Shown here in pieces: positions 30,798 through 44,793 of a stretch of 64,000 nt of DNA (its first letter is position 1; each line of letters begins with the position of its first letter). This DNA is from Clostridium sp. CMCC3677 (GTDB lineage: Bacteria; Bacillota; Clostridia; Clostridiales; Clostridiaceae). Location of the stretch: contig NZ_JAMQHS010000002.1 of the NCBI RefSeq assembly GCF_023845585.1, positions 248,001-312,000 on the forward strand. The letters are read 5' to 3'. The translations under genes and the position numbers were made by a program. The notes below the pieces were generated by a model. That model was not told the origin of the DNA. It saw only the letters and a program-made list of their open reading frames with translations, and ran no database searches.

Positions 30798-31322
30798 TTA
30801 TATTTTACTCATATGATTTATTTTTAATAAGTTATGTACTGTTATATAAAAATCTACTAGTAAATAAATAAATAAAAATATAGTTAACTTTACAAACATT
30901 ACTTCACTTCTTATAAAGATATTAAGAAAATTTGGCTCTATATATTTTAATCCTAAAAGTGTCATTAAAGTCCAAGTTATAGAGAATTTTAAGCTAACTA
31001 ATCCCTTAAAATTATACTTTAAATTAGAGTAGCTCCAATAAACTTTATTAAAAATTTCCTTTAATAAATATCCACTTATGTATTCTATTGTAGATGGTGT
31101 AAAAAAGCAAAACATTAACATTAATGTTGTATAATCAGAAAAATAATTCTTTAATATTATAAGAATGCTTACAGTTATTCCATACATAGGTTTAAATGGA
31201 CCTATTAGAAAACCATCCTCTTTAAATTTTCCAGTTATGCAAAAACAATATACTTCTTCAATAATCCATCCTATAAAAGAATAAACAATAAAATTAAATA
31301 ATGTATAATTAATTAAATTCAT
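30798..31322 (-). CDS. CmpB-type putative membrane protein (ABC_trans_CmpB family)
   Basis: This protein of about 174 residues has four to five membrane helices. The N-terminus FNFIVYSFIGWIIEEVYCF followed by GFLIGPFKPMYG is the typical opening of the family annotated putative ABC transporter permease (CmpB). EYISGYLLKEIF and YWSYSNLKYNFKGLVSLKFSITW follow, as in other members. Despite the name, no ABC partner is nearby and the function is not established. I start at ATG 31322 after AAGGAAGGTG rather than the earlier GTG. Confidence 0.85.
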   Translation of the reverse strand: MNLINYTLFNFIVYSFIGWIIEEVYCFCITGKFKEDGFLIGPFKPMYGITVSILIILKNYFSDYTTLMLMFCFFTPSTIEYISGYLLKEIFNKVYWSYSNLKYNFKGLVSLKFSITWTLMTLLGLKYIEPNFLNIFIRSEVMFVKLTIFLFIYLLVDFYITVHNLLKINHMSKI

Positions 31323-31403
31323 TGAGTTTATCACCTTCCTTAAGGTTAATATTTACATAACTCAATATATTTATTTATTAATTAAATGATTTTTTGCAAT
31401 TAC

Positions 31404-31432
31404 TTGTTATAATGTTCTTATAGTTATATAAA
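31404..31432 (+). promoter_or_regulatory. Candidate promoter of alaX
   Basis: TTGTTA (31404-31409) and TATAAA (31427-31432) are 17 bp apart, about 30 bases upstream of the start codon. Confidence 0.5.
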
Positions 31433-31460
31433 ATATAAGTTAATACAAGGAGAATATCTT

Positions 31461-32660
31461 ATGCAAAAACTTTACTACGAAGATCAATATTTAAAGAAAT
31501 TCACTGCTGAAATAGACGAGGTCAAAGAAGTAGGTAATGAGTTTCATATAGTTTTAAATAAAACTGCATTTTTCCCAGGGGGAGGAGGACAAAAACATGA
31601 TTTAGGCAAAATCGATGAAATTGAAGTGTTAAATATCTATGAAAAAGATAATTTAATTTATCATGTACTAGATAGAAAACCTTCGAGAATACATAATGTT
31701 AAATGTTCAATAGATTGGTTAAGACGATTAGATGGAATGAATCATCATTTAGCTCAACATGTACTATCTGCATGCTTCTTTAAGCTTTTTAATATAAATA
31801 CAATTGCAGTTCATCATGGAAATGAATTTAGTACCATTGACTTTAATTCTATACTTACAGAAGAACAGGTACGTTCCTGTGAAAAATATGCTAATGATAT
31901 TATTGAAAAATCCTTAGATGTAGAATTTCTAACTCCAACTAAAAGAGAGCTTAAAAATATGAAACTTAGAAGAGATCTTCCAGATACTAATGAACAAATA
32001 CGTATTGTTAAAATTGATGATTTAGACCTTAATGCTTGTTGTGGTGTTCACCCTAAATCAACATTAGATTTAAGACTTATAAAAATAAAAAAATATGAAA
32101 AACATAAAAAAGGATCAAGAATTGAATTTATAACCGGATCAAAGGCTGTAAGTGATTCTTTAGAAAAAGATTCATTTGCAAATTCTATGTGTAAATACTT
32201 AAATTGCAATGAAAAAGAAGCTTTAAATGGAATAGAAAATTTAAACTTAGAATTAAAAAATGTACTGAATGAAAATAAAAATATGAGTATTGAACTTTCA
32301 AATTATGAAATTAAAGAAATTATAGAAAACTCAGCTCAAATTAATAATATAAACATTATTAAATATGTATATAATAATAAAACCTTAAAATTTGTTAATA
32401 CAATTGTTTCACAAATAACAGAAAAAGATAATAAAATTGCTCTAATTGCACTAGTAAATGATGATAAAATAAACCTTATATTTTCATGTTCTAAAAATAT
32501 AAAAAATGTTAATATGGGTGAATTATTAAAAGATGCAATAGTTCTTATAGATGGACGTGGCGGTGGAAATCAAACCCTTGCACAAGGTGCTGGTAAGAAT
32601 TTATTAAACTTAGAAAATACCTTAGACTATGCTTTTAATAAGCTTAATTTAATAATATAA
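31461..32660 (+). CDS. alaX: Alanyl-tRNA editing protein AlaX (long form)
   Basis: This 399-residue stand-alone editing enzyme hydrolyses mischarged Ser- or Gly-tRNA(Ala). The N-terminal beta domain has AFFPGGGGQKHD, and the zinc site is made of HxxxH (His96, His100 in HHLAQHVLSA) and CCGVH near residue 195 (tRNA_SAD domain). The C-terminal DHHA1 domain ends with GRGGGNQTLAQGAG. The length fits the AlaX-L class with DHHA1, missing the aminoacylation core of AlaRS. AAGGAG precedes the ATG. It is monocistronic with a strong shared terminator. Confidence 0.94.
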   Translation: MQKLYYEDQYLKKFTAEIDEVKEVGNEFHIVLNKTAFFPGGGGQKHDLGKIDEIEVLNIYEKDNLIYHVLDRKPSRIHNVKCSIDWLRRLDGMNHHLAQHVLSACFFKLFNINTIAVHHGNEFSTIDFNSILTEEQVRSCEKYANDIIEKSLDVEFLTPTKRELKNMKLRRDLPDTNEQIRIVKIDDLDLNACCGVHPKSTLDLRLIKIKKYEKHKKGSRIEFITGSKAVSDSLEKDSFANSMCKYLNCNEKEALNGIENLNLELKNVLNENKNMSIELSNYEIKEIIENSAQINNINIIKYVYNNKTLKFVNTIVSQITEKDNKIALIALVNDDKINLIFSCSKNIKNVNMGELLKDAIVLIDGRGGGNQTLAQGAGKNLLNLENTLDYAFNKLNLII

Positions 32661-32670
32661 ATTCCTAAAT

Positions 32671-32720
32671 AATAAAAAATCAACCGAAATCTCTAGTACT
32701 CTAAAGGTTGATTTTTTATT
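32671..32720. terminator. Bidirectional terminator between alaX and the BMC operon
   Basis: The perfect 15-bp arms AATAAAAAATCAACC and GGTTGATTTTTTATT have A/T runs on both ends and lie between convergent genes. Confidence 0.9.
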
Positions 32721-32749
32721 CTAATATATTAAACATTTTAAATATATTA

Positions 32750-33298
32750 CTATAATAATGTTTGAACTAATTCTTTGCTTGGTGAAGGTAATACTACAGT
32801 TCCTATAATATCTCCTCCCTCTTCAAGCTTAGCTTCTGCTGCTTCTATTGCTGCTTTAACAGCCGATACTTCTCCTGTAAGGATAACGTATCCTTTTCCG
32901 CCAAGACCTCTTGCTATTCTTATCTCTAATAGTTCTACATTAGCTGCCTTTAGTGCTGTATCACCTGCAATTACGGAAGCAACAGCTGACATTGTTTCAA
33001 TAACACCAATAGATGAAATGTTATCAAAATCACAAGTTGCTGTTATTGCTGGAAATACTTTTTCATGTACACTAGCTATTGTATATTCGCTTATAAGATA
33101 GCTAAGTCCTACTTCCTTACCAACACCTACAGCATTTGTGACATCTCCTACATCTCCTGCTAATATTACTATATATTTACCTGGACACATTGGAGTTGCT
33201 AAGATAATTTCTACATTAGCGGATTTAACCATTTCATCGGCTGCTTGAATTCCTTTTGCGATACTTTTAAATTCTAGTAATCCAATAGATCTTCTCAT
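32750..33298 (-). CDS. pduT: BMC shell protein, PduT-type (tandem BMC-T)
   Basis: This 182-residue protein has two fused BMC domains: SIGLLEFKSIAKGIQAADEMVKSANV and SIGVIETMSAVASVIAGDTALKAANV. It would form a trimer that fills a hexagon position in the shell. The MCPGK loop in the first domain carries the single Cys that in PduT binds a [4Fe-4S] cluster at the trimer axis, so electron transfer across the shell is likely, with PduS (adjacent gene) as partner. AAGGAGAG precedes the ATG. It is the last gene of the operon. Confidence 0.93.
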   Translation of the reverse strand: MRRSIGLLEFKSIAKGIQAADEMVKSANVEIILATPMCPGKYIVILAGDVGDVTNAVGVGKEVGLSYLISEYTIASVHEKVFPAITATCDFDNISSIGVIETMSAVASVIAGDTALKAANVELLEIRIARGLGGKGYVILTGEVSAVKAAIEAAEAKLEEGGDIIGTVVLPSPSKELVQTLL

Positions 33299-33322
33299 TT
33301 CACTCTCTCCTTTCTAGTTATC

Positions 33323-34648
33323 CTATCTACTTATAACAATGCTATCATCATTTATTTCTTTTATAACTCCATCTATACTTGCATGAATCTTTGCACCTAA
33401 TTTATCATTAGGTATATCTCCTATAAGATCACCCTTTTTAACTACATCCCCAATATTAACTATTGGTTCTGCTTTAGCTCCTATATGTTGAGATCTTAAG
33501 ATTACAACTTCTGAAAAATCATATTCCTCATTTTGAAGTGGTGCTTCAGCATCGTATTTTTCTATATTTAATCTTTGCTTAAGCTTATGAACTGGGAATT
33601 TTCTATATTCTCTAAAATCATCTGCTTTTTCTGGAGCATTATGATTAGGATTTTTAATGCCATTTTTAGCTAATTCACCTTTAAAGAAACTATTTAACTT
33701 CCAAGGTTGAAGTCCCATTACACAAACTTGTTCGCAAAGTCCACATTCACTGCATAAAAATGAAGCTGTTGGTAAAATTTCTTTACTGCAAGTTCCACCA
33801 TAACTTGCAATTCTCATCATCTTATCTGGTTCTAACTTATGTCCTAATAAATGTCTTGGACATACCTCAGTACACATTGAACAATGGCAACATGCTGCTC
33901 TTGCTTGTTTTAACATAGATTGTATGTTTCTTTTCTTTGAAACAACTATATTGTGACTCTTAGGTATAACTATTAATCCTTTAGTATTTTTCTTTATAGG
34001 TCTATTAATATCTTCTATTAATTTACCCATCATAGGACCACCATCAATGATTTCAAACTCATCAATCAATGTTCCACCTGCTAATTCAAGAGCTTGTCTT
34101 ACTGATATTCCAATGGGAACTTTAACAGTAATAGGATTTTTAACTTCACCTGTAATAGTTAAAAATTTTTCAGTAACTGGTTTTCCTTCTAAAGCATTAT
34201 ATACATTTAATAATGTTTCAACGTTAATAACTATAACCCCAACACTTAAAGGAATCCCACCTTCTGGAACAACTCTTTTAGTTACTTCATAAACAGTAAT
34301 TTGTTCATCTCCTGCTGGATAAAAATTTCCAAGTTCGAATAATTCTAGTTTCGGATATTCTCCTAATTTTTCATTTAAATTTTTCATTGCTGACTTATAT
34401 TTACCCTTTAAAGCAATAACCCCTTTAGTTGCTTCTGTTTGCTCTACTATTTTGTTTAATGCATATAAAAGTTCAGAAGATTTTTCTGCCATCAATTGTT
34501 GATCTACTTTCAGAAGTGGTTCACATTCAGCACCATTAACAATAACATATTCAACTTTTGCATTTAATTTTACATGAGTTGGAAATCCAGCGCCACCAGC
34601 ACCAATTAATCCACCATCTTTTATTAAATCTAAAAAGTTTTTTTCCAC
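33323..34648 (-). CDS. pduS: PduS-like RnfC-type iron-sulfur flavoprotein
   Basis: This protein of about 441 residues is related to RnfC/NqrF-type electron carriers. GAGGAGFPTHVKL near the start and ANGAECEPLL-type NAD/FMN binding (IVNGAECEPLLKVDQQL) are visible. Two [4Fe-4S] motifs follow (CCHCSMCTEVCP and CSECGLCEQVCVMG), then a C-terminal RnfC barrel-sandwich region. In Pdu systems it reduces cofactors and passes electrons to the shell protein PduT. I prefer the GTG at 34648, 10 bases after GGAG; the ATG at 34657 overlaps that site. It lies between the aldehyde dehydrogenase and pduT. Confidence 0.93.
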   Translation of the reverse strand: MEKNFLDLIKDGGLIGAGGAGFPTHVKLNAKVEYVIVNGAECEPLLKVDQQLMAEKSSELLYALNKIVEQTEATKGVIALKGKYKSAMKNLNEKLGEYPKLELFELGNFYPAGDEQITVYEVTKRVVPEGGIPLSVGVIVINVETLLNVYNALEGKPVTEKFLTITGEVKNPITVKVPIGISVRQALELAGGTLIDEFEIIDGGPMMGKLIEDINRPIKKNTKGLIVIPKSHNIVVSKKRNIQSMLKQARAACCHCSMCTEVCPRHLLGHKLEPDKMMRIASYGGTCSKEILPTASFLCSECGLCEQVCVMGLQPWKLNSFFKGELAKNGIKNPNHNAPEKADDFREYRKFPVHKLKQRLNIEKYDAEAPLQNEEYDFSEVVILRSQHIGAKAEPIVNIGDVVKKGDLIGDIPNDKLGAKIHASIDGVIKEINDDSIVISR

Positions 34649-34665
34649 TAATCTCATCTCCAATT

Positions 34666-36159
34666 CTATTTAATAGAGAAATTATCTACCATTACACATC
34701 TTCTTTTTCTTGTAAATGTTCTTGCAGATGTTAAACCTTCTCCAGTTGGGCCTGCAATAGTAAATGTTCCATGTCCTTCTGCACCATATCCAATTCCTGC
34801 ATATGATGGAGCATTTTTAACAAATATAGTTGTTTGTACTGCTTTAGCAAATTTACTTAAATTATCTATGTGTTTTGAGTGCATTATAGCAGTATGTCTA
34901 TTTCCATGTTCAAGCTCAACACCAAGGTCTATAGCCTCATCTACATTTCTAACCCTTATAACTGGTAAAATTGGCATCATAAGTTCTTCAACTGCAAATG
35001 GATGATTTGCTTCAACTTCAGCAAATATAACTCTTATGCTTGGATCTATATTAACTCCTAACTTACTCATTATATAGTCAGCATTTTTTCCAACAAATTT
35101 TTTATTTATAGTTCCATTCTCTGTTAAAACAAGTTTTTCTAATTGTGCAAGCATATTTTTATCAGTTATTTCTAACGCACAATATTTTGACATACAAGTC
35201 TTTAAGTAATCTGCAACTTTCTCTACTACTATTACTTCTTTTTCACAGATACATGGTAAATTATTATCAAAACTACAGCCATCTATAATATCAACTGCAG
35301 CTTTTTCAATATCAGCAGTTTCATCAATAACTACTGGTGGATTTCCAGCTCCAGCTCCTATTGCTTTTTTACCACTTGATAATGCTACTTTAACAATTCC
35401 TGGACCACCTGTTGCACAAATCATATTAACTTTTGGATGAGCTAACATTATATTAGTACTTTCAATATTTGGATTTCTAACAGTAACTATAAGATTCTTA
35501 GGTCCGTTTACTCTTTCTATTGCTTTATTAATAAGTTGTATTATAAATACTGAAACATCTTTTGCTCCTGGATGAGGTGAAAATACAACTGTATTACCTC
35601 CTGCAAGCATTGATATTCCGTTGTTTATTATTGTTTCAGTTGGATTAGTTGATGGTGCAATTGCTCCTATAACTCCAAATGGTGACATTTCATAAAGAGT
35701 TAATCCACCATCTCCAGTTTTAACCCCAGCTTCAAGGTCTTCTACCCCTGGAGTTTTATCTAATGCAAGATTATTTTTAAGTATTTTATCTTCATATCTA
35801 CCCATTCCAGTTTCTTCAAAAGTTCTACGAGATATTTCTTCTACATTTTTTCTCACTTCTGCTTTAAATGCTTCAATTATTTCAGTTCTTTTATCCAATC
35901 CAACTTTTCTATATTCTTGTTCTGCTATCCATGCTTGCTCTATAGCATCATTTATATCTTCAAATACACCATATTCACCAATTGGCATTGTAGGAGTATT
36001 CACAAATCCCATTATTTTCTTTTCAATATCTGCTAATGGATTTACTTCTTTTGGGACAGCGGCAGTAGTTATAACCCCTTGTTCTTTCTCATTCCCTGTA
36101 AGCTCTTTAACGATATTTTTAACTATACTTTCTATATCTATCATATTGAAATCATTCAT
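34666..36159 (-). CDS. pduP: CoA-acylating aldehyde dehydrogenase (PduP/EutE type)
   Basis: This 497-residue enzyme oxidises an aldehyde with CoA and NAD+ to acyl-CoA and NADH. The catalytic Cys sits in SFDNNLPCICEKE, and cofactor loops GVIGAIAPSTNPTE and ATGGPGIV are present. The first 18 residues (IDIESIVKNIVKEL) form an amphipathic helix followed by a flexible linker, the classic encapsulation peptide that directs cargo into the shell. GGGGG precedes the ATG. This is the core enzyme of the metabolosome; the chain length of its aldehyde cannot be read by eye. Confidence 0.95.
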   Translation of the reverse strand: MNDFNMIDIESIVKNIVKELTGNEKEQGVITTAAVPKEVNPLADIEKKIMGFVNTPTMPIGEYGVFEDINDAIEQAWIAEQEYRKVGLDKRTEIIEAFKAEVRKNVEEISRRTFEETGMGRYEDKILKNNLALDKTPGVEDLEAGVKTGDGGLTLYEMSPFGVIGAIAPSTNPTETIINNGISMLAGGNTVVFSPHPGAKDVSVFIIQLINKAIERVNGPKNLIVTVRNPNIESTNIMLAHPKVNMICATGGPGIVKVALSSGKKAIGAGAGNPPVVIDETADIEKAAVDIIDGCSFDNNLPCICEKEVIVVEKVADYLKTCMSKYCALEITDKNMLAQLEKLVLTENGTINKKFVGKNADYIMSKLGVNIDPSIRVIFAEVEANHPFAVEELMMPILPVIRVRNVDEAIDLGVELEHGNRHTAIMHSKHIDNLSKFAKAVQTTIFVKNAPSYAGIGYGAEGHGTFTIAGPTGEGLTSARTFTRKRRCVMVDNFSIK

Positions 36160-36177
36160 TCTATTTTCCCCCTAATT

Positions 36178-36450
36178 TCATTCTTTACTTACTTCAACGC
36201 TATCTACTATAGCAACAATAGCTCTATCTATAGGTGCATCCTTAGCATTAAATTGTTGATGTGCTGCATAACCAGTTGCTACTAATACAAGTTCACCATT
36301 ACCTGCTCCTACAGAATCTATAGCTACTTCAATATTTCCTGCTGGATTATATTCTGGAGTTAATGGTTGTACAATAAGCATTTTCTTTCCTACTAGTCCT
36401 TCGCTTTTGGTTGTTGCAACCACTACTCCAACCACTTTTGCTAAATACAT
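36178..36450 (-). CDS. eutN: BMC vertex protein EutN/CcmL
   Basis: This 90-residue protein of the EutN/CcmL/PduN family forms pentamers that cap the vertices of the polyhedral shell. MYLAKVVGVVVATTKSEGLVGKKMLIV and DSVGAGNGELVLV are the family blocks. It is a single copy, as needed for a closed shell. It starts 9 bases after the flavoprotein-like gene stops and ends 18 bases before the aldehyde dehydrogenase gene. Confidence 0.95.
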   Translation of the reverse strand: MYLAKVVGVVVATTKSEGLVGKKMLIVQPLTPEYNPAGNIEVAIDSVGAGNGELVLVATGYAAHQQFNAKDAPIDRAIVAIVDSVEVSKE

Positions 36451-36459
36451 ATTTTTGCC

Positions 36460-37308
36460 CTACCTTTTTATAATTTGTATTCCAAGCTCTTCTGCTAAAT
36501 CTTTCGCAAGAGCTGTAATTATAGAATTACTTGAAATTACAATTTTTTTATTCCCACTATTATTAGAGATATCTTCACTTGAAATTACTTTTTTATTTAT
36601 TTTGAATTCTAAAGCTTTATGATTTTCATTAAAGTCCTTTTTAAAATTACTTAATACGATTTCATTTATATTACTATCATCTATTTTAGATTTAACTTTG
36701 GGTAAACTATCTTTTTTTAAATCGTTTTTTATTATAGAATCAAATATATTATCTGAATCAACTAACTTTATTCCATAAGATTCTAACCTATCTAAATATC
36801 CCTTAATCATATTCATATATGGAACAGGAATATTTTTGTACGGATTTCTTCTTGTATTACATTCTCTAAAATCAACACTGTCTTTAGAGATTATTACTTT
36901 TGTACCATTTAAAATACACTTTGATATAAGTGCAGTCGGCATGGTATCACTTATTCCATTTGCTACTTTGGATAAGGAATTTATACTTAACGTTGCACCT
37001 ATTAATAAATCAAATTCTTCATCATATATATGGTTACTATCTTCTAAATAATCATCTATATAAATATCTTCCATATTAAAAATTTCATTTATAATATTTG
37101 GATCTATTATCTGTGATGCATATTTTGATAAAACTGCTTTTAATTTTATACCTTGAGTTTTTAATTTTTTCAATTCCGTGATGCTCTCTTTTAATCCCAC
37201 TGTACTTCCTGTAAAAAAAACCACAGCTTTTTTAGTTCTAAATGATTTATTTTCCAGTTGAGACATCACCTCTTTTAAAACGACTTGGACAATCTCATCA
37301 AAGTTCAA
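36460..37308 (-). CDS. BMC-associated flavoprotein-like protein
   Basis: This protein of about 282 residues has a Rossmann-like region resembling the flavoprotein (PPC decarboxylase-type) family: KKAVVFFTGSTVGLKESITEL, LKAVLSKYASQIID, and ATLSINSLSKVANGISDTMPT, which parallels the usual PaT.NT.aK.A.GiaD motif. A charged linker follows, then a C-terminal IITALAKDLAEELGIQII motif. The N-terminus (NFDEIVQVVLKEVMSQLENK) is an amphipathic helix like an encapsulation peptide, so it may be cargo. I start it at TTG 37308, six bases after GAGGTG; the next upstream codon would overlap eutJ. Catalytic role unknown. Confidence 0.65.
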   Translation of the reverse strand: MNFDEIVQVVLKEVMSQLENKSFRTKKAVVFFTGSTVGLKESITELKKLKTQGIKLKAVLSKYASQIIDPNIINEIFNMEDIYIDDYLEDSNHIYDEEFDLLIGATLSINSLSKVANGISDTMPTALISKCILNGTKVIISKDSVDFRECNTRRNPYKNIPVPYMNMIKGYLDRLESYGIKLVDSDNIFDSIIKNDLKKDSLPKVKSKIDDSNINEIVLSNFKKDFNENHKALEFKINKKVISSEDISNNSGNKKIVISSNSIITALAKDLAEELGIQIIKR

Positions 37309-37318
37309 ATTAATCACC

Positions 37319-38140
37319 TCACTTAATGCAACTAACAGCAATGCCTAGAGGTGTAACTAGCAATGGATGGTTTGGTTTTATAGTTTCTATACCAATAATC
37401 TTTTCAAAAACAGATGTAAATTCACTGAAACTACACGCTCCACCAACAACATAAATTTTATTTACATCATAGCCTTGTAAATGTTTTTTTACAATATAAG
37501 CCATCTTTTCTATAACCGGTTTGATAAGGATAAAATTATCTTTTTCTTTTTTAGAATCTTTTTTTAATTTTTCTGCTTCCTCAAAAGATATATTGTAATT
37601 CCCCGATAAAACTAAACTCATATGAGTACCACCTGTTGGTTCATCTGCTGTATATAATACTTTACCATCTTTTAAAATACTTACTCCAGTTGTACCACCA
37701 CCAACATCAACAACTGCTCCATCTTTTATTCCAAGTACTGCTGCTGCTGCAGTTGGTTCATCAATAATACTAACCAATTCTATATCAGCTGCTTCTAGTA
37801 CATTTCCAATTGCTTTTACATTTCCCTCTAAAGTTCCAGGTGGAATTGCTGTTGATCCATAACTTATAGTTGTACCTAAAACCTTCTCTACTTTAGCTTT
37901 TAACTTTTTTACTATTTCTATAGCACCAATAAAATCTACAACTAGTCCATCTTTCACAACAGATGCTGGATATGATGCTCCAGCTACTGGATTATTATTT
38001 TTGTCAACTACTGAAAGAACTATATTGGCTGTACCTAGATCTACTCCAACTTTTAAGTTATTACTAACTTCATTGCACTTTTCTTCTTTTATTAAATTAT
38101 AAAAAATATCTAACCCTTTGTTTGCATCATCTAACCCCAT
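37319..38140 (-). CDS. eutJ: EutJ-like actin-fold chaperone
   Basis: This 273-residue actin/Hsp70-type ATPase domain has GVDLGTANIVLSVVD (phosphate 1), DVGGGTTGVSILKDG (phosphate 2) and VVGGACSFSEF (adenosine motif). It matches EutJ of ethanolamine BMC loci, which is presumed to assist folding or assembly and is not an enzyme of the pathway. It starts two bases after pduL ends, with AAGGAG, and its 3' end is 10 bases from the next gene. Its presence in an otherwise Pdu-like set makes the locus a mixed type. Confidence 0.9.
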   Translation of the reverse strand: MGLDDANKGLDIFYNLIKEEKCNEVSNNLKVGVDLGTANIVLSVVDKNNNPVAGASYPASVVKDGLVVDFIGAIEIVKKLKAKVEKVLGTTISYGSTAIPPGTLEGNVKAIGNVLEAADIELVSIIDEPTAAAAVLGIKDGAVVDVGGGTTGVSILKDGKVLYTADEPTGGTHMSLVLSGNYNISFEEAEKLKKDSKKEKDNFILIKPVIEKMAYIVKKHLQGYDVNKIYVVGGACSFSEFTSVFEKIIGIETIKPNHPLLVTPLGIAVSCIK

Positions 38141-38142
38141 AG

Positions 38143-38799
38143 CTAAACTCCTTCAACTTTAGTAATTCTTATCTTATCACCATTTTTTAGTCCTGAAGCA
38201 TTAGCTTCATCCGTATCAATATGCATTTCTGGTACAAAATCATCTGAAATCCTAATAATTACATTGTGAAAAGTTACTTTTCTTGGACCATAACTAGTTA
38301 CATCTACTAACTCTCCATCTCTATATCCATATTTTTTTGCAAAGTCTGTAGATAAATGAATATGCCTCGCAGCAATTATTACACCCTGATCTATTTTTAT
38401 TTCCCCTTTAGGTCCCTTCAGTAATATTCCTGGAGTACCACTAAGTTTTCCTGATTGTCTTATAGGTGCATTTATACCTAATTTCATTTTATCTGATATT
38501 GAAACTTCTAATTGAGTAGATTCTCTCAATGGTCCAAGTACTCTTATTCTTTCAAAATATCCTTTCGGACCTCTAGCTTCAACTGTTTCATCATATGCAT
38601 ATTGTCCTGGCTGTCTCAACTCTTTTTTTATATTAGGTTTATAATTTTCTCCAAATAAGCCTTCAAGTTCCCTTAATCCAAGATGAATATGCTTATTAGA
38701 TATTCCTACGGGTATTAAACTTTCATTATACTTATTCAATTCTTCTATAACTGCTTTTGTAACAGTTAATATTATTTTTTCTATATCTACTTGAACCAT
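38143..38799 (-). CDS. pduL: Phosphotransacylase PduL
   Basis: This 218-residue enzyme converts acyl-CoA and phosphate into acyl-phosphate and free CoA inside the compartment. Zinc-ligand motifs are NKHIHLG near residue 35 and AARHIHLST near 145; QPGQYAYDETV and PEMHIDTDEANA are also family blocks. The first 20 residues (VDIEKIILTVTKAVIEELNK) form an encapsulation-type helix. It recycles CoA for the aldehyde dehydrogenase and allows ATP formation by a kinase encoded elsewhere. An AAGGGG site lies upstream of the ATG. Confidence 0.96.
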   Translation of the reverse strand: MVQVDIEKIILTVTKAVIEELNKYNESLIPVGISNKHIHLGLRELEGLFGENYKPNIKKELRQPGQYAYDETVEARGPKGYFERIRVLGPLRESTQLEVSISDKMKLGINAPIRQSGKLSGTPGILLKGPKGEIKIDQGVIIAARHIHLSTDFAKKYGYRDGELVDVTSYGPRKVTFHNVIIRISDDFVPEMHIDTDEANASGLKNGDKIRITKVEGV

Positions 38800-38824
38800 A
38801 TGAAATTTCTACCCCTTTCTTATA

Positions 38825-39103
38825 TTAAAGATTAGACTGTGGTAATATTTTTTCAGTATCTATATGTGGTCTTGGAATTACATGTATTGATACTACTTCT
38901 CCTACTTTTTGTGCCGCTGCTGCTCCTGCATCTGTTGCTGCTTTAACAGCTCCCACATCTCCTCTTACCATTACAGTTACTAGTCCTGATCCTATTTTTT
39001 CATATCCTACTAATGTTACATTAGCACTTTTAACCATAGCATCTGCTGCTTCTATAGCTCCTATTAAACCCTTTGTTTCTACCATTCCTAATGCATCTTT
39101 CAT
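38825..39103 (-). CDS. pduA: BMC-H shell protein PduA-type, copy 2
   Basis: This 92-residue single-domain shell protein forms hexamers tiling the facets. It reads [20 protein letters not shown] with the pore loop around KIGSGLV. It is almost identical to the protein encoded at 39208-39486 (changes confined to a few positions and the C-terminal tail), so the pair comes from a recent tandem duplication. I start it at the ATG after AAGGAGG; an upstream ATG would add 11 residues through the ribosome site. Confidence 0.95.
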
Positions 39104-39207
39104 AATAATATCCTCCTTAAAATCAATCATTAACAATATTCCAAATATTCAGAACATATTTTTTAAAACAAATTCCTTAATAATATTATTTAACTTAATC
39201 TTAGTTA

Positions 39208-39486
39208 TTAATTTTCAACTTTTGGTATTAATTTTTCAGTATCCATATGTGGTCTTGGAATTACGTGTATTGATACTACTTCTCCTACTTTTTGTGCTGC
39301 TGCTGCTCCTGCATCTGTTGCTGCTTTAACAGCTCCCACATCTCCTCTTACCATTACAGTTACTAGTCCTGATCCTATTTTTTCATATCCTACTAATATT
39401 ACGTTAGCACTTTTAACCATAGCATCTGCTGCCTCTATAGCCCCTATTAATCCCTTTGTTTCTACCATTCCTAATGCATCATGCAT
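39208..39486 (-). CDS. pduA: BMC-H shell protein PduA-type, copy 1
   Basis: This 92-residue hexameric facet protein has the same sequence core as its neighbour at 38825-39103, including the ribosome-site region AGGAGGATATTATT. It differs at residue 2 (His for Lys), residue 30 (Ile for Thr) and the tail after PRPH. The pore-lining KIGSGLV is identical, so both probably pass the same small polar metabolites. A 104-base gap separates the two copies. Confidence 0.95.
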
Positions 39487-39501
39487 AATAATATCCTCCT
39501 C

Positions 39502-40002
39502 TTATTTCTTTATTTCATTAAAATGTATACAAGAAATTCTAGGTTCTCCTTTTTTTCTTGAACACATTGGGTCCATACATAAATTGCATATTATATTTTT
39601 TTCTTCGACTGTCTTAATATCTTCTTTATCACTTAATCTTTTTATTTCCTCATTAGATTTATGTTCATTTTCTACTTTATTAACTTTTTTTTTACTTTCT
39701 AAGGATGTAGTAGCTTTGTTCTTAGCAAATATAATATTTTTTAATTCAGAGTTAGGTCTAGGTATAATAGATGTAGACACTACTTTATTAACTAAAGCCG
39801 CTGAAGCAGATGCAGATTGAATTGCAGCTTTTACAGCACCAACATCACCCTTTATTTTAACTACAACTGTTCCACCTTTTGAATTTTCATATCCTATGAC
39901 CTCTACATTAGATGATTTCACAGCAGTATCAGCTGCTTCTATTCCAGCTACAAGACCAATTGTTTCAATAAGTCCTAAAGCAAAGCTCTCCAGTTTAACC
40001 AC
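39502..40002 (-). CDS. pduK: BMC-H shell protein with Cys-rich tail (PduK-like)
   Basis: This protein of about 166 residues has an N-terminal BMC domain (LGLIETIGLVAGIEAADTAV, pore loop NSKGGTV), a Lys/Glu-rich linker of about 45 residues, and a C-terminal motif CNLCMDPMCSRKKGEPRISC. That motif has four Cys and probably holds an iron-sulfur cluster, as proposed for PduK. Start is uncertain: GTG at 40002 overlaps the AAGGGGG ribosome site, so initiation may be at a nearby non-ATG codon. It is a third hexamer-forming protein of this shell. Confidence 0.85.
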   Translation of the reverse strand: MVKLESFALGLIETIGLVAGIEAADTAVKSSNVEVIGYENSKGGTVVVKIKGDVGAVKAAIQSASASAALVNKVVSTSIIPRPNSELKNIIFAKNKATTSLESKKKVNKVENEHKSNEEIKRLSDKEDIKTVEEKNIICNLCMDPMCSRKKGEPRISCIHFNEIKK

Positions 40003-40065
40003 CCCCTTAAATAATTTTTATTTAAAAATAAGCTATATACAAATTTAAAATAATAAATTCTAAAA

Positions 40066-40884
40066 TTAAATGTAAGGAGTACTTTGTGAAGTAGGTGTAC
40101 TTCCTATTTTAGATAAAATATTTGTACCTAATTCTCTTGCTGTAATTAAAGCTTGTTTAACGGCTTCTGAATCACCATAAATTGTTGTTACACATTCATT
40201 GCTATAACTAGTTTTATAAGCTGGTGACCAGTGATCTATTATATCAACATTTGATGCTTTTAAAGCACTATCTGCCATTAGAAGTCCTATTGCTGCTGGA
40301 GCTCCTACTATAACTCCAAATGCTGTTCCTATAGGTGCATTAAAAGCCTTATTGCAAGCGTAACTAGCTCTTGGGGTATATTGAATTTCTAGATGTCCAC
40401 ATTCATTAATGTATAGATTACCAAATGTTCTATTTAAATCATTTAGAGTAATTTCTACAGCTTGTCTTACATCTGACACATCATCTGCTCCAAAAACTAT
40501 TAATACTCCATGACCCGCATTACCTTTTGTATCTCTTGCAAGTTCAACTTTTATTATTTCTGAATTAGTTCCTTTTACAGCCTCATCAGCAGAAATTATC
40601 TGTGCACTTGCACCAGTACGTGCTCCTATTATTCCAATAGATCTATATTTTTTAGAAACATTCATCTTATTAAGTAGTAATTCATTTACATTGGCTATAA
40701 CAAGACCTACTGTATCTCCAATTGCACTTCCAACAAACTCAGGAATATCATTTTCAAAACTAATCTTATTATTCTGAAAATTTTGTATATTTTTTAATTC
40801 TTCTTTATTTTCATTCGTATCAATTGTATTTTCTACATTTTTCAAAACTTCAGATATAATATTTCTCATTAATTGCTCCTGCAC
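40066..40884 (-). CDS. pduB: BMC-T shell protein PduB
   Basis: This protein of about 272 residues has two fused BMC domains forming trimers, and it matches PduB block for block: FVGSAIGDTVGLVIANV, YRSIGIIGARTGASAQI, ELARDTKGNAGHGVL, YTPRASYACNKAFNAPIG and GVIVGAPAAIGLLMADSAL. The N-terminal helix (QEQLMRNIISEVLKNV) parallels the PduB segment that tethers cargo to the shell. GTG at 40884 fits the AGGAGGAG spacing; an ATG at 40869 preceded by GGAG could give a shorter form, reminiscent of PduB/PduB'. Confidence 0.94.
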   Translation of the reverse strand: MQEQLMRNIISEVLKNVENTIDTNENKEELKNIQNFQNNKISFENDIPEFVGSAIGDTVGLVIANVNELLLNKMNVSKKYRSIGIIGARTGASAQIISADEAVKGTNSEIIKVELARDTKGNAGHGVLIVFGADDVSDVRQAVEITLNDLNRTFGNLYINECGHLEIQYTPRASYACNKAFNAPIGTAFGVIVGAPAAIGLLMADSALKASNVDIIDHWSPAYKTSYSNECVTTIYGDSEAVKQALITARELGTNILSKIGSTPTSQSTPYI

Positions 40885-41081
40885 AATCAATCTCCTCCTA
40901 TGAATTTAATATTTTAAGTTATATATATTTTATTAAACTAGGAATTACTGTAAATTAACAGCTAATCAAATTCTCTTTATTTGTATAATTTAATATTTAC
41001 ATTAAACATTCAAAACTTTGTTAAAAAAATTACAAATGCTTTTAAAATTTTCTATATAATTTTTTTTGAAAAATACCTATT

Positions 41082-41120
41082 TTGTTATAATCGTATATTT
41101 ATTTATACTTTTTATAACAA
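41082..41120 (-). promoter_or_regulatory. Inverted repeat in the adh-pduB gap
   Basis: TTGTTATA (41082-41089) and TATAACAA (41113-41120) are exact inverted repeats in the 355-base gap between the alcohol dehydrogenase stop and pduB. The gap holds no gene. It could contain an internal promoter or operator letting the shell genes be expressed apart from the dehydrogenase; no T-tailed terminator is seen. Confidence 0.35.
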
Positions 41121-41239
41121 TAATCAACTATAGCATACAGATTTTATTAATTAATACTCTGTGATAATTAACATGGCATTGTAATTACTTTTTTGCTGTT
41201 AATTATTTAACAAGTATTTTCAAAAAAAATTATGCCTTT

Positions 41240-42403
41240 TTAATTTCCATTATAAGCTTTAATTAAAACATCTCTTAAACCTTTTTCATCAACAGTTCTT
41301 GGATTTCCGCCAGTACAAATATCCTGCATCGCTCTACCACACATTGAATCCAAAGCTTCTTTAAATGAACTTTCATCAATTCCAAAATCTTTTATTCTTA
41401 TTGGTATATTTACAGATTGCAATAAAGCTTTTAAAGCTTTCCCAAACATTACTACACCTTCTTTAAAATCAGTATGTGGTAATCCTAATAACCTAGCTAT
41501 CTCTGTATATCTCTTAGCAGCCTTAAAATCATAGCAATCATTTTCATCAAATAATGATGAATTGTATTCTACAACATACGGTAAAAGAACTGCGTTAGAT
41601 CTACCATGGGTTATTCCAAAAGTTGCACCTAATGCATGAGCTAGACTGTGATTTATTCCAAGTCCAGCATTTTCAAATGCTATTCCAGCCATACAAGATG
41701 CATTATGAATTTTCATTCTTGCTTCTTGATCTATTCCATTTTTAAATGCTTTTTCTGCATAATCAAATATTGTGGAAATTGCTTCTTTTGCTAATGCATC
41801 AGTATACTCTGATGCCCCTATTGATACATATGCTTCAAGAGCATGAGTTAATACATCTAATGCTGTATCAGCAGTTACTGTAGGTGGAACACTTTTTGTA
41901 AAATTCCAATCTAACAATGCAACATCTGCGTACATAATATCACTTTTTAGTGGTATTTTAGTATGTGTTGATGCATCAGTTATAACTGCATACGATGTTA
42001 CTTCTGATCCAGTTCCACTTGTAGTAGGAATCGCTATAAAATATGGTTTTTCTTGATTTGAAGAAGGCAATTTTTGCTTTAGTACATCTAAAAAATAAAT
42101 CATAGCTTTTGAAGCATCAATTACAGATCCTCCACCTATAGCAATTATAGTATCTGCACCATAATCTAAAAATTTTTTAAATCCATGGGTAACTACTTCC
42201 ATTGTTGGTTCAGGTTCTACCTCTGTAAATACTTCATAATTTATTCCATTTTCTTTTAATATACTTGTTACTGGATCGATTACACCAAGCTTGGACATAA
42301 CTTTATCAGTAACTATAAATATTCCTTTTGACTTAAGATCTCTTAAATGTTGCACAGCATTATCTTCATACAATATTTGCGCTGGAACCTTAAAACTTTT
42401 CAT
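41240..42403 (-). CDS. pduQ: Iron-containing alcohol dehydrogenase (PduQ-like)
   Basis: This 387-residue group III (Fe-dependent) alcohol dehydrogenase has NAD-binding GGGSVIDASK and TTSGTGSEV. Metal ligands are visible in TALDVLTHALEAY, NHSLAHALG and HGRSNAVLLPY. In BMC operons such enzymes reduce part of the aldehyde to alcohol to regenerate NAD+, or oxidise an alcohol to feed the aldehyde dehydrogenase. It is the promoter-proximal gene and is separated from the shell genes by 355 bases. No clear encapsulation peptide is visible. GGAGG lies 10 bases before the ATG. Confidence 0.92.
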   Translation of the reverse strand: MKSFKVPAQILYEDNAVQHLRDLKSKGIFIVTDKVMSKLGVIDPVTSILKENGINYEVFTEVEPEPTMEVVTHGFKKFLDYGADTIIAIGGGSVIDASKAMIYFLDVLKQKLPSSNQEKPYFIAIPTTSGTGSEVTSYAVITDASTHTKIPLKSDIMYADVALLDWNFTKSVPPTVTADTALDVLTHALEAYVSIGASEYTDALAKEAISTIFDYAEKAFKNGIDQEARMKIHNASCMAGIAFENAGLGINHSLAHALGATFGITHGRSNAVLLPYVVEYNSSLFDENDCYDFKAAKRYTEIARLLGLPHTDFKEGVVMFGKALKALLQSVNIPIRIKDFGIDESSFKEALDSMCGRAMQDICTGGNPRTVDEKGLRDVLIKAYNGN

Positions 42404-42534
42404 CTCCTTAATACCTCCATTTTATTTTTGGAGAATATACAGCTTGTTAATTTAATAACATTCCTAATTAATTTGATTTTACCATATTAAACATAAATTT
42501 CAAGTAATTTTTTATAAAATTGAAAAATATTTTT

Positions 42535-42548
42535 AAATCACTTGATTT
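42535..42548 (-). promoter_or_regulatory. Small palindrome in the BMC operon leader
   Basis: AAATCA-CT-TGATTT (plus strand) has exact 6-bp arms and lies about 60 bases downstream of the candidate -10 box. It is a possible operator for an unlinked regulator. Confidence 0.3.
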
Positions 42549-42606
42549 ATACATATTTTTCTCTTATAAATATACTTGTTATGGTACTTTTTTCTATGTT
42601 TAATTA

Positions 42607-42636
42607 ATTATAACAAAATTCTGAAAATTTGTACAA
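42607..42636 (-). promoter_or_regulatory. Candidate promoter of the BMC operon
   Basis: On the minus strand, TTGTAC (42636-42631) and TATAAT (42612-42607) are 18 bp apart. This implies a leader of about 200 nt before the alcohol dehydrogenase, long enough for regulation. Confidence 0.5.
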
Positions 42637-42733
42637 TGATTTTTTTTATTTTTTCCTTTTAACTATGTTAATATTTTAACTTATATTCGTATCATTGATT
42701 CAATTTACAATCTACTTATCTAATGTATTTAAA

Positions 42734-42778
42734 AAAACAAAAAGCAAAGAAATTTATACAATCTTTGCTTCTTGTTTT
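42734..42778 (-). terminator. Terminator of the 101-residue gene
   Basis: The stem AAACAAAAAGCAAAGA pairs with TCTTTGCTTCTTGTTT (one mismatch) and is followed by a T-run on the minus strand. It insulates the BMC promoter from upstream transcription. Confidence 0.85.
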
Positions 42779-42803
42779 AGCTCTGTTTTTAAGTAAAATA
42801 TTT

Positions 42804-43109
42804 CTATTTCTTTATTTGAGAATTTAATTTATCATAAAGATTATTTAAATGCTCTATATCTACATTCTGATTTTTAAGATTTTCCATTCTTCTATCTATT
42901 ATTTCCAATGTATATTTTGCCTCTTTAAAATCTTTATCTTTAATACAATTATTAGTATATGTTAATAAATAATCTATTTTTAAAACATCTTCTGCTAAAT
43001 CTTCTTTATCTTCATTAACTAAGCTAACCAATAAAGAATAGACTTTAGGAGTTGTTGTACTTTTTGTTTCTTTTAATAAATCATTGTTTCTACTGTTTCT
43101 TTTCGCCAT
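42804..43109 (-). CDS. Hypothetical helical protein, 101 residues
   Basis: I do not recognise this protein. It has a basic N-terminus (MAKRNSRNN) followed by predicted helices rich in Lys, Asp and Leu, with a possible coiled coil in the last third (YTLEIIDRRMENLKNQNVDIEHLNNLYDKL). It has no signal peptide or membrane segment. GAGGTG precedes the ATG and a terminator follows, supporting a real single-gene unit. Function unknown. Confidence 0.6.
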   Translation of the reverse strand: MAKRNSRNNDLLKETKSTTTPKVYSLLVSLVNEDKEDLAEDVLKIDYLLTYTNNCIKDKDFKEAKYTLEIIDRRMENLKNQNVDIEHLNNLYDKLNSQIKK

Positions 43110-43331
43110 TTTTACACCTCTTTCTAGTGAAATAATATATCTTAAGTTTTAACTATGGAGTTGCTAATTTATTTGATATATTATCATTCATTTTATTTAC
43201 TAATTAGATTTTCATTATAAATTATTGCATAAAAAATTTCAATATTGAAGACAATACTTTCATTTTTAATAAATGTATTTATTAATTATTCATAAAATTT
43301 AGCATTAAATAGATAATTATTTTTACATATT

Positions 43332-43376
43332 AGAATCCCCTCAAAATATACAGTATATTCTAAGGGGATTCTTTTT
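43332..43376. terminator. Terminator at the end of tcyP
   Basis: A 10-bp GC-containing stem AGAATCCCCT/AGGGGATTCT has a 21-base loop. The T-run is on the plus-strand side and overlaps the tcyP stop, so it may be weaker for the minus strand. Confidence 0.65.
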
Positions 43377-44766
43377 ACTTACTATTAATAATTTTTTCTT
43401 TATCTATTTTATCAAAACTATTTGCAACAGTAACAGCTGTTACCATTGTTCCATTTACATTAAGCATTGTACGACCCATATCAAGAATTGGATCTATTGC
43501 AAGAATACCACCTGCTAATGAGAAATAATTTCCCATTCCCATACCTGATATTACTACAGACACTGCCATAGTAGCAGTACCTGGAAGTCCTGCAATTCCA
43601 AGCGAACTTATTACTATTATTACTAGTAACATTCCATAAAAGCTAAAATTCATTGGTGTTCCTGACATATTAGCAATTGTAACTGCCATTAGTGCTGGAT
43701 ATATAGCTGCACATCCATTCATTCCTGCATTAGATCCTAAACTTCCAACAAAGCTTGCTATTCCGTCATCTACTCCAACCTTTTCTGTTAATGTATCTAT
43801 TGTTACAGGTAATGTACCTAAACTAGATCGTGAAGTAAAAGCCAATATTAAAGGTTCCATTGTATTTTTTAAATACTTAATAGGATTCAAACCATTAAGA
43901 GCTATTATCACTAAATGTATTACAAACACTATAGCTATACTAACATATAAAGCTATTATGAAATCTAATACGCTCATAAGTGCTGGTATTCCCCTTGCTG
44001 CAATTGTATTTGCAAGTAATGCTATTACTGCATAAGGCATAAATTTAATTACCGTCATAGCTACACTTGTAGTAATTTTGTATGCTGCTTCTACTAAATC
44101 TTTAGCTGGTTTTATTATATCAGAATATTTCTTTTTAAGTCTATTCATTGCAGCTCCTATAAATCCTGCAAAAATAACAACTCCAACAACATTTGCATCT
44201 GCCATAGCTTTAACTGGATTTGATGGAAGCAATCCTCTAAAAGTATCAACTACAGAACTTATTTCTTTCATTTCTGAATTATTTTGAATAGGTCCAAAAC
44301 CTACACCTAATTTAAATAAATTTCCTATAACAATTCCAACTATAGCAGCAATTGTAGTTGTACCGAGTAAAATAAATAATGACCTAAATGTAAGTTTTCC
44401 TAATTTTTCGCCTTCTTTCATATTAATAATCACTCTTATTATTGAAAGAAATACTAAAGGAATAACTAGCATCTTTAGTAAATCCATAAATCCATAGCCA
44501 AACAATCCATACCACTTTGTAACTTCACCTATCCATGTTATATTATCTGTTGTTTCTGGTAATCCTGCTGCTACTTGTATCACACCTCCAAGTAGCAATC
44601 CTAAAATAGTTGCTAAAATCATTCTTTTAGAAAAATTCACTTTTTTTCTCTCAAGAACTTTTATTAAATAAAACGTTCCTATTAAAATTCCTATAAATAA
44701 TATAGTTTTAAAATTTGTTACCATTAAAAAATCTGTTAAAAATGTACTGTTCATCATATTCCCCAT
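43375..44766 (-). CDS. tcyP: L-cystine/sodium symporter TcyP
   Basis: This 463-residue polytopic carrier of the dicarboxylate/amino acid:cation symporter family has about eight helices plus re-entrant loops. DLLKMLVIPLVFLSIIRVI, AFTSRSSLGTLPVTID (the Ser-rich hairpin) and FVGSLGSNAGMNGCAAIYPALMAV match the TcyP branch for cystine uptake rather than the glutamate branch. It is a single-gene unit. A palindrome just upstream of the start codon suggests regulation, plausibly by sulfur supply. Together with the SAM-riboswitch transporter, the window holds two sulfur-amino-acid importers. Confidence 0.88.
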   Translation of the reverse strand: MGNMMNSTFLTDFLMVTNFKTILFIGILIGTFYLIKVLERKKVNFSKRMILATILGLLLGGVIQVAAGLPETTDNITWIGEVTKWYGLFGYGFMDLLKMLVIPLVFLSIIRVIINMKEGEKLGKLTFRSLFILLGTTTIAAIVGIVIGNLFKLGVGFGPIQNNSEMKEISSVVDTFRGLLPSNPVKAMADANVVGVVIFAGFIGAAMNRLKKKYSDIIKPAKDLVEAAYKITTSVAMTVIKFMPYAVIALLANTIAARGIPALMSVLDFIIALYVSIAIVFVIHLVIIALNGLNPIKYLKNTMEPLILAFTSRSSLGTLPVTIDTLTEKVGVDDGIASFVGSLGSNAGMNGCAAIYPALMAVTIANMSGTPMNFSFYGMLLVIIVISSLGIAGLPGTATMAVSVVISGMGMGNYFSLAGGILAIDPILDMGRTMLNVNGTMVTAVTVANSFDKIDKEKIINSK

Positions 44767-44793
44767 CCTTTGTTTATTATTCCTATAGGTTTA

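What the first reader, a model, noticed from the sequence alone, without database searches (positions are those of the whole stretch)
32750..42403. Complete BMC operon with aldehyde core but no signature enzyme
Seen: five shell genes (pduB, pduK-like, two pduA, pduT), an eutN vertex gene, CoA-acylating aldehyde dehydrogenase, PduL, PduS, iron alcohol dehydrogenase, EutJ and a flavoprotein-like gene, all on one strand. Known: metabolosomes are usually defined by a signature enzyme that makes the aldehyde (diol dehydratase, ethanolamine lyase, glycyl-radical lyase). None is in or next to this operon, nor is a regulator. Inference: either the alcohol dehydrogenase makes the aldehyde from an alcohol (as proposed for the ethanol-utilisation type of C. 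kluyveri), or this is a satellite shell serving an enzyme encoded elsewhere. The mixed Pdu-plus-EutJ content makes the type hard to name.
Basis: partly seen in the sequence, partly recalled or inferred. Interest (0 to 1): 0.75.

Follow-up and report, generated by a model that had tools for sequence, protein, structure and literature searches.

The report
NADH-switched microcompartment without signature enzyme
This Clostridium operon carries a complete, intact gene set for a predicted protein-shelled aldehyde compartment, conserved in three species, but lacks the aldehyde-making enzyme that relatives carry in the same spot; conserved DNA sites suggest that it is likely switched by the cell's NADH sensor instead, perhaps to turn excess reducing power into alcohol.

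Summary
Window 42403-32750 (minus strand) carries an iron alcohol dehydrogenase, PduB, PduK-like, two PduA, PduL, EutJ, a TIGR02536-like flavoprotein, EutN, PduP, PduS and PduT, all intact, with no signature enzyme. This gene set fits the catalogued 'MUF' locus (Axen 2014), whose function is unassigned. It is narrow: 3 of 206 family genomes. All 12 genes are under purifying selection. Of 12 loci with this gene order, 9 hold PduCDEGH before PduK, one (Tepidibacter) a glycyl-radical dehydratase there, and only the two other MUF species nothing. So MUF most likely is a PDU compartment that lost its dehydratase and PduO. An encapsulation-peptide model finds only the locus's own proteins at E<0.4 in three genomes. 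The only dehydratase found in all three genomes is a glycyl-radical enzyme without the encapsulation insert; EutB is absent. New here: the longest conserved blocks in both upstream regions resemble Rex (NADH/NAD+) operators; none stand before that orphan dehydratase or in the two related BMC promoters examined. Such boxes are near background genome-wide, so position and conservation carry the case. I infer a redox-gated aldehyde/alcohol core, probably working reductively. Rex binding, direction and substrate are untested.

The parts
41240..42403 (-). Iron-containing alcohol dehydrogenase, PduQ-like (387 aa); no encapsulation peptide seen
   Evidence: 79% identical orthologs in the same place in C. 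weizhouense and C. uliginosum
42665..42682 (.). Rex-box-like site upstream of the alcohol dehydrogenase (3 of 14 mismatches); overlaps an 18-nt run identical in three species
42444..42461 (.). Second Rex-box-like site upstream of the alcohol dehydrogenase (2 mismatches); 17 of 18 columns identical in three species
41196..41213 (.). Rex box upstream of pduB (1 mismatch); holds the longest fully conserved run (17 nt) of that region
41018..41035 (.). Second Rex-box-like site upstream of pduB (2 mismatches); overlaps the second longest conserved run (13 nt)
40066..40890 (-). PduB-type tandem BMC-T shell protein
39502..40002 (-). PduK-like BMC-H with C-terminal four-Cys motif
39208..39486 (-). PduA-type BMC-H
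38825..39136 (-). PduA-type BMC-H, second copy (ATG start gives 92 aa, 38825-39103)
38143..38799 (-). PduL phosphotransacylase with N-terminal encapsulation peptide
37319..38140 (-). EutJ-family chaperone-like ATPase
36460..37341 (-). TIGR02536-like flavoprotein with N-terminal encapsulation peptide
36178..36450 (-). EutN/CcmL-type BMC-P vertex protein
34666..36159 (-). PduP-type CoA-acylating aldehyde dehydrogenase with encapsulation peptide
33323..34663 (-). PduS, RnfC-like FMN/Fe-S electron-transfer protein (start codon uncertain)
32750..33298 (-). PduT tandem BMC-T with CPGK (Fe-S pore) motif
40003..40065 (.). Emptied slot: directly before PduK, Tepidibacter has a glycyl-radical dehydratase and activase and 9 other loci have PduCDEGH

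Best explanation
This is a complete and intact microcompartment operon of the catalogued MUF type that likely descends from a propanediol (PDU) compartment which lost its diol dehydratase, and it is predicted to be controlled by the NADH sensor Rex and would use its reversible core to turn short acyl groups or aldehydes into alcohol inside the shell. SHOWN: gene content, absence of a signature gene from the slot that relatives fill, purifying selection, the place of its AldDH beside PDU-type enzymes, encapsulation peptides found only on its own cargo, and Rex-box-like sequences as the longest conserved upstream blocks in three species. INFERRED: Rex lets the operon be expressed when NADH/NAD+ is high; PduL keeps a private CoA pool; PduP and the PduQ-like dehydrogenase move electrons from NADH onto acyl-CoA and aldehyde; PduS, PduT and PduK, retained although no B12 or glycyl-radical enzyme is encoded in the locus, would exchange electrons across the shell. 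The substrate is probably C2 or C3.
For: Gene set fits MUF. Of 12 loci with EutJ and the flavoprotein, 9 have PduC, 1 a glycyl-radical dehydratase, 2 none (the other MUF species); in 9 of 9 PduC loci PduCDEGH lies directly before PduK and PduO between EutN and PduP, where the window has 63 and 18 bp. AldDH tree: the MUF trio sits in a 100% set of 7 with Tepidibacter (GRE), two Marinisporobacter (PduC) and C. bornimense. dN/dS 0.04-0.45 in all 12 genes and 3 pairs. Rex-box-like sites: pduB upstream has two sites with 2 or fewer mismatches in 3 of 3 species (fractions of 5000 shuffles 0.0022, 0.001, 0.005); the two longest conserved runs of each upstream region overlap such sites. The genome has rex (365.1 bits against 233), with boxes before crt-bcd, pta-ackA, a formate/nitrite transporter, etfB and the dhaB1 glycerol dehydratase. 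No site with 3 or fewer mismatches before the orphan GRE in three species, Tepidibacter PduA or one C. beijerinckii-like BMC GRE. PduT CPGK and PduK four-Cys motifs kept in 10 of 10 loci read; C. freundii PduS is an NADH-reduced FMN/Fe-S protein that binds PduT (PMC2982820, passages). NCBI names orthologs '1-propanol dehydrogenase PduQ'.
Against: Rex binding is not shown. Genome-wide, boxes with 1 mismatch or less are near background (16 found, 11.7 simulated) and 2-mismatch boxes are at background (180 against 172 with the reversed pattern); the case rests on position and conservation. The shuffle fractions upstream of the alcohol dehydrogenase are weak in two species (0.064, 0.050). Few promoters of related BMC loci could be examined (two), since most fetched stretches do not reach the operon start. 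Flux direction is pure inference; two of the three genomes also have an AdhE-length aldehyde-alcohol dehydrogenase, so a second ethanol route is not obviously needed. A related PDU compartment is induced by ethanol in A. woodii (PMC7593272, passages), which fits oxidation. All three genomes carry a possible aldehyde source in trans. The dehydrogenase has no encapsulation peptide.
Confidence: 0.45

Rival explanations
1. Signature enzyme in trans: a cytosolic dehydratase, most likely the orphan glycyl-radical enzyme (G000:C77:180972-183380, about 97 kb away), makes propionaldehyde or 3-hydroxypropionaldehyde, and MUF dismutates it to alcohol and acyl phosphate.
For: It is the only dehydratase found in 3 of 3 MUF genomes (90% and 84% identical). 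In the window genome it is preceded by a PocR-type kinase and an AraC-type response regulator, as is the start of the Tepidibacter BMC locus that has a GRE in the slot. The genome's B12 dehydratase large subunit (dhaB, C77:122.8k) is 75-81% identical to PduC of the 9 related loci, as a relocated signature could be.
Against: The orphan GRE lacks the roughly 50-60 aa insert that encapsulated 1,2-PD GREs carry (PMC6325248, passages); 9 of 65 non-MUF genomes of the genus have it too; no Rex box and no shared 13-mer with the MUF upstream regions; it is no closer to the Tepidibacter GRE than DhaB1 is (64% against 67%). The B12 enzyme has no PduC-like match at E<=1e-100 in G065 and its PduD/PduE lack N-terminal peptides.
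Confidence: 0.2
2. Ethanol/propanol-oxidising compartment: the alcohol dehydrogenase makes the aldehyde and PduP/PduL harvest acyl phosphate, as proposed for C. kluyveri ETU.
For: The dehydrogenase lies next to the shell operon in all three species; A. woodii induces its pdu BMC on ethanol.
Against: Rex-type control implies expression when NADH is high, when a two-step NADH-generating oxidation is least favourable (inference); gene content differs from ETU.
Confidence: 0.15
3. An unrecognised signature enzyme elsewhere is encapsulated by a divergent targeting peptide or by piggy-backing.
For: Encapsulation peptides are weakly conserved and the 21-position model is insensitive; other locus types lack obvious signature enzymes (PMC8217296, passages).
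Against: The model, built partly on PduD/PduE peptides, found only locus proteins at E below 0.4 in three genomes; EutB is absent and PduC was not found in G065.
Confidence: 0.17
4. A decaying relic of a PDU locus.
For: PduCDEGH and PduO are missing where 9 of 9 related loci have them.
Against: All 12 genes intact and under purifying selection in three species; upstream blocks conserved.
Confidence: 0.03

Closest known systems
MUF (metabolosome of unknown function), Axen et al. 2014
   Different: Nothing in gene content as described in the text; the ancestry, the Rex-box-like sites and the cargo search are added here. The two MUF loci named there were not fetched or compared
PDU loci with PduCDEGH in Thermohalobacter, Geosporobacter, Alkaliphilus, Marinisporobacter and others (9 loci)
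   Same: Order PduK-PduA-PduL-EutJ-flavoprotein-EutN-PduP, with PduS-PduT after PduP in 7 of the 9 (L036 is cut at the contig end inside PduS; L037 has an alcohol dehydrogenase there); AldDH 60-66% identical
   Different: They carry PduCDEGH before PduK and PduO before PduP; encapsulation peptides on PduD and PduE
GRE-type PDU locus of Tepidibacter McLGI.53 (L028)
   Same: Nearest BMC AldDH outside the trio by identity (74%) and same gene order
   Different: Has GRE with internal encapsulation insert, activase, kinase and AraC-type regulator; no Rex box found
ETU locus of C. kluyveri
   Same: AldDH and alcohol dehydrogenase with shell genes and no lyase/dehydratase
   Different: Two AldDH, three AlcDH, no PTAC, no BMC-P (text seen)
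Choline (cutC/cutD) locus of the same genome (C129)
   Same: Same genome; also phosphotransacylase, EutJ-like, PduS/PduT-like genes
   Different: Has choline lyase and activase (1641.8 bits against 1050 and 564.9 against 360); its AldDHs are far away in the tree

Membership tests
MUF (Axen 2014) | AldDH, AlcDH and phosphotransacylase all present | tested here: met
[quoted passage not shown]
MUF (Axen 2014) | PduS- and EutJ-like proteins | tested here: met
MUF (Axen 2014) | no signature enzyme in the locus | tested here: met
MUF (Axen 2014) | sequence relationship to the two MUF loci named in the paper | not tested
   those records were not fetched; a 95% identical dehydrogenase is named from the same species
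PDU | B12 diol dehydratase PduCDE in the locus | tested here: not met
PDU | AldDH grouped with PDU-type AldDHs | tested here: met
   100% set with Marinisporobacter and Tepidibacter; the wider set of 16 rows has SH-aLRT 85 and also holds two AldDHs of C. beijerinckii-like GRM loci
GRM | GRE and activase in the locus | tested here: not met
EUT | EutB in the genome | tested here: not met
   0 of 3 MUF genomes
ETU | two AldDH, three AlcDH, no PTAC, no BMC-P | tested here: not met
   one AldDH, one AlcDH, PduL and EutN present (definition)
Satellite locus | lacks either hexamer-type or pentamer-type shell genes | tested here: not met
   both present; definition
Rex regulon | conserved operator TTGTTAAN4TTAACAA upstream | tested here: met
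   consensus from PMC5367854; near-consensus, not perfect; genome-wide background is high
Rex regulon | binding and response to NADH/NAD+ | not testable with these tools
   needs experiment

The most novel reading that the evidence does not exclude
A metabolosome that runs backwards: it has no aldehyde-making signature enzyme because its aldehyde is made inside the shell from acyl-CoA, recharged from acyl phosphate by PduL, so that the compartment is an encapsulated NADH vent producing alcohol, switched by Rex; evolution built it by emptying the signature slot of a PDU locus and swapping a substrate sensor for a redox sensor.
Probability: 0.3. Interest if true: 0.85.

Novelty: new member of a known kind. 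Interest (0 to 1): 0.6.

Why it matters
Metabolosomes are classified by the enzyme that makes their aldehyde, and several catalogued types have none and no known function. Here a signature-less type gets an ancestry (a PDU locus that lost its dehydratase), a tested list of missing partners, and a concrete regulatory handle (Rex) that turns 'function unknown' into simple tests. If the reductive reading is right, compartments are also used to dispose of reducing power, not only to break down substrates.

Tried and rejected
B12 diol dehydratase in trans as the general partner: dhaB exists in G000 and G067, but no PduC match at E<=1e-100 in G065, and the G000 PduD/PduE lack N-terminal peptides. 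DhaB1 as the general partner: present in G000 and G065 with a Rex box at its promoter, but G067 has no second match at E<=1e-200 beside the orphan GRE. Choline lyase: it has its own full locus at C129. Riboswitch: no Rfam match in 28000-48000. Shared motif between orphan-GRE and MUF upstream regions: the 13-mer conserved before the GRE in three species is not in the window's MUF regions. Plasmid copies: only a 41-base match to a Listeria record. Other encapsulated cargo: four weak hits at E 0.4-4.5, not shared between genomes; read and dropped. Literature: 'Rex' with 'microcompartment', 'NADH' and 'redox-sensing' gave 2 papers, listing only, neither about BMC control by title; the MUF search matched 1,412 papers, 15 listed, of which only PMC4207490 and PMC8217296 use it for BMCs; C. 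botulinum with microcompartment and Eklund 17B gave only PMC4207490; C. botulinum group II with propanediol utilization and expression gave none. The library holds open-licence papers only.
Full report
OBSERVATION. The finding is confirmed at its coordinates. On the minus strand, window 42403-32750 holds an iron alcohol dehydrogenase, PduB, a PduK-like BMC-H, two PduA, PduL, EutJ, a TIGR02536-like flavoprotein, EutN, PduP, PduS and PduT. There is no signature enzyme and no regulator gene in or beside it. The dehydrogenase is followed by a 349-bp gap and then PduB; the other gaps are 63 bp or less, apart from 71-104 bp (by start codon) between the two PduA genes. The window lies at G000:C77:248001-312000 of a 3.64-Mb genome.

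THE REST OF THE GENOME. Fifteen BMC-domain matches fall in two places only: 7 in this operon and 8 in a second, full choline-type locus on C129 with cutC, its activase, and its own aldehyde dehydrogenases; an iron alcohol dehydrogenase lies a few genes away. There are five pyruvate-formate-lyase-like genes: cutC; DhaB1 with dhaT (C98; 1597 bits to PDB 1r8w, B12-independent glycerol dehydratase); an orphan GRE on C77, about 97 kb from the operon (1187 bits to 1r8w); one on C108 (750 aa), not identified further; and 4-hydroxyphenylacetate decarboxylase in this window. One B12 dehydratase of the propanediol/glycerol family (C77:122.8k; 1047 bits against 788) stands with what reads as dhaT. EutB is absent from the three MUF genomes.

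IT FITS MUF. Axen et al. 2014 describe a MUF locus in two Clostridium botulinum strains with all core enzymes, BMC-H/T/P, PduS and EutJ, but no signature enzyme, and leave its function open (PMC4207490, section 28 read). The 2021 catalogue still uses MUF for loci of unknown function (PMC8217296, passages). I did not fetch the two named loci. The nearest dehydrogenase in the protein collection (95%) is named from C. botulinum, then C. taeniosporum (88%), C. weizhouense and C. uliginosum (79%). The window's organism is therefore in or near that clade, and I propose no bench work in it. EutJ of 80% or more is found in 3 of 68 genus genomes and in 3 of 206 family genomes: G000, G065, G067. The other five family genomes with EutJ at E<=1e-100 are 64-68% identical; four of their loci were read and are of a different make-up with PocR-type regulators, the fifth (G002) was seen only in part. 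G065 and G067 share the exact pduB upstream sequences of the C. uliginosum and C. weizhouense loci. The order dehydrogenase-PduB-...-PduT-AlaX-like is the same in all three.

WHERE IT COMES FROM. A scan with PduP kept the best 80 of 101 named loci. Of these, 12 carry EutJ and the flavoprotein: 9 with PduC, 1 with a GRE (Tepidibacter L028) and 2 without a signature, the MUF species; five further PduC loci lack EutJ. In 9 of 9 PduC loci the order is PduCDEGH-PduK-PduA-PduL-EutJ-flavoprotein-EutN-PduO-PduP; PduB is seen before PduC in the four whose stretch reaches that far; in L028 the GRE and activase lie between PduB and PduK. In the window these places are 63 and 18 bp. In the AldDH tree (52 rows; quick method, SH-aLRT only) the MUF trio (99) falls in a 100% set with Tepidibacter, two Marinisporobacter (PduC) and C. 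bornimense, which has the enzyme without shell genes; the wider set of 16 has 85 and includes two AldDHs of C. beijerinckii-like GRM loci. The parsimonious reading is a PDU locus that lost PduCDEGH and PduO. All 12 genes are under purifying selection (dN/dS 0.04-0.45 in three pairs), so it is no relic.

IS THE SIGNATURE ENZYME ELSEWHERE? An alignment of 34 encapsulation peptides of this locus family, including PduD and PduE, searched against three MUF genomes found the locus's own PduL, PduP and flavoprotein in each (9 hits, E 3e-4 to 6e-3), PduB once (0.12), and four weak unrelated hits. The model contains MUF peptides, so those hits are partly circular, and its sensitivity for strangers is unmeasured. 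No PduC match at E<=1e-100 in G065, and G067 has no second match at E<=1e-200 beside the orphan GRE, so only the orphan GRE is common to all three (100, 90, 84%). It is also in 9 of 65 other genus genomes at 70% or more. It lacks the insert of about 50-60 residues near residue 600 that the Tepidibacter GRE and seven longer GREs of the genus have; two of those seven (G012, G023) were seen inside a BMC locus. That insert is predicted to be the encapsulation peptide of 1,2-PD GREs (PMC6325248, passages). Against my reading stands that the genome's B12 dehydratase is 75-81% identical to PduC of the nine loci, so a relocated, unencapsulated signature is thinkable for G000 and G067. Either enzyme could feed MUF from the cytosol, but nothing ties them to MUF beyond co-presence.

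REGULATION. Aligning the two upstream regions of three species shows blocks matching the Rex operator TTGTTAANNNNTTAACAA (consensus from PMC5367854, passages). pduB has two sites in each species (1 and 2 mismatches; fractions of 5000 shuffles 0.0022, 0.001 and 0.005); the dehydrogenase has two (2-3 mismatches; 0.064, 0.050 and 0.0008). The longest runs identical in three species overlap these sites: 17 and 13 nt upstream of pduB (a 12-nt run without a full box comes third), and 18, 18 and 10 nt upstream of the dehydrogenase, where one 18-nt run and the 10-nt run are one site and its flanks split by one column; overall identity is 54% and 64%. Against this: counts are near background genome-wide (16 sites with 1 or fewer mismatches against 11.7 in six simulations, though 3 perfect against 0.17; 2-mismatch sites 180 against 172 with the reversed pattern). 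All 16 were looked at. Nine stand before fermentation or redox genes: two before crt-bcd beside rex itself, and one each before pta-ackA, etfB, a NADH-linked flavoprotein, a formate/nitrite transporter, a zinc-type dehydrogenase, dhaB1 and pduB. One is before perR, two lie inside coding sequence, four are before other genes. No site with 3 or fewer mismatches stands before the orphan GRE in three species, before Tepidibacter PduA or before one C. beijerinckii-like BMC GRE. Ten related 20-kb stretches hold two sites with 2 or fewer mismatches, both inside genes, but most of these stretches do not reach the operon start, so this is a control on locus bodies more than on promoters. AdhE of G000 has only a 3-mismatch site and AdhE of G067 none; no AdhE-length match was found in G065.

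MECHANISM. Rex generally represses fermentation genes at low NADH/NAD+ (established knowledge; papers seen as listing only). Expression at high NADH argues for a core that consumes NADH. PduP- and PduL-type reactions are reversible (established knowledge): acyl phosphate to acyl-CoA (PduL), acyl-CoA to aldehyde (PduP, NADH), aldehyde to alcohol (PduQ-like dehydrogenase, NADH), with CoA recycled inside. PduS (NADH-reducible FMN and Fe-S, binds PduT in C. freundii; PMC2982820, passages) was kept although the locus has neither a B12 nor a GRE client; PduT CPGK and PduK four-Cys motifs are kept in 10 of 10 loci read. An electron relay over the shell fits. Direction and substrate are inference.

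VERDICT. The locus is a member of a known but functionally blank type. The PDU ancestry with an emptied slot, the negative cargo search and the Rex-box-like sites were not found in the papers searched and make the function testable.

Noticed in passing
window 57208-62590 (-): 4-Hydroxyphenylacetate decarboxylase large subunit, small subunit (59552-59836), activase and an MFS transporter: a predicted p-cresol-forming cluster.
   Followed up: partly
L013/L014 (G000:C129:148-182 kb): Second complete microcompartment locus of the choline (cutC/cutD) type in the same genome.
   Followed up: partly
L022, L023, L024: Three different glycerol/diol dehydratases, each preceded by a similar sensor kinase (PocR domain confirmed by HMM for L023 only) and AraC-type response regulator, in one genome.
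   Followed up: partly
L022 10790-12481: The genome's B12 dehydratase large subunit is 75-81% identical to PduC of the nine syntenic PDU loci although it has lost (or never had) encapsulation peptides on its small subunits.
   Followed up: partly
L166, L170, L171, L173: In four other genus genomes the orphan-GRE ortholog (71-76%) sits with electron-transfer-flavoprotein and GlcD-like oxidase genes, in three of them with a LctP-type lactate permease; HMM check made for L166 only.
   Followed up: partly
L024 promoter (G000:C98:81302-81319) and G065:C73:9768-9785: Rex box (1 mismatch) in front of B12-independent glycerol dehydratase dhaB1 in two species.
   Followed up: partly
L031: C. bornimense has the MUF-like aldehyde dehydrogenase (68%) without any shell gene within about 10 kb.
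   Followed up: no
window 31461-32660 (+): AlaX-like alanyl-tRNA editing protein conserved directly beside the operon in all three species.
   Followed up: no
window 45429-47387 (-): EF-G-like GTPase nearest to the ribosomal protection family, but below its cut-off (431.8 against 775 bits).
   Followed up: no
L022 16-8182: Type I-B CRISPR-Cas genes (Cas3 and Cas1b confirmed by HMM) next to the B12 dehydratase region.
   Followed up: no
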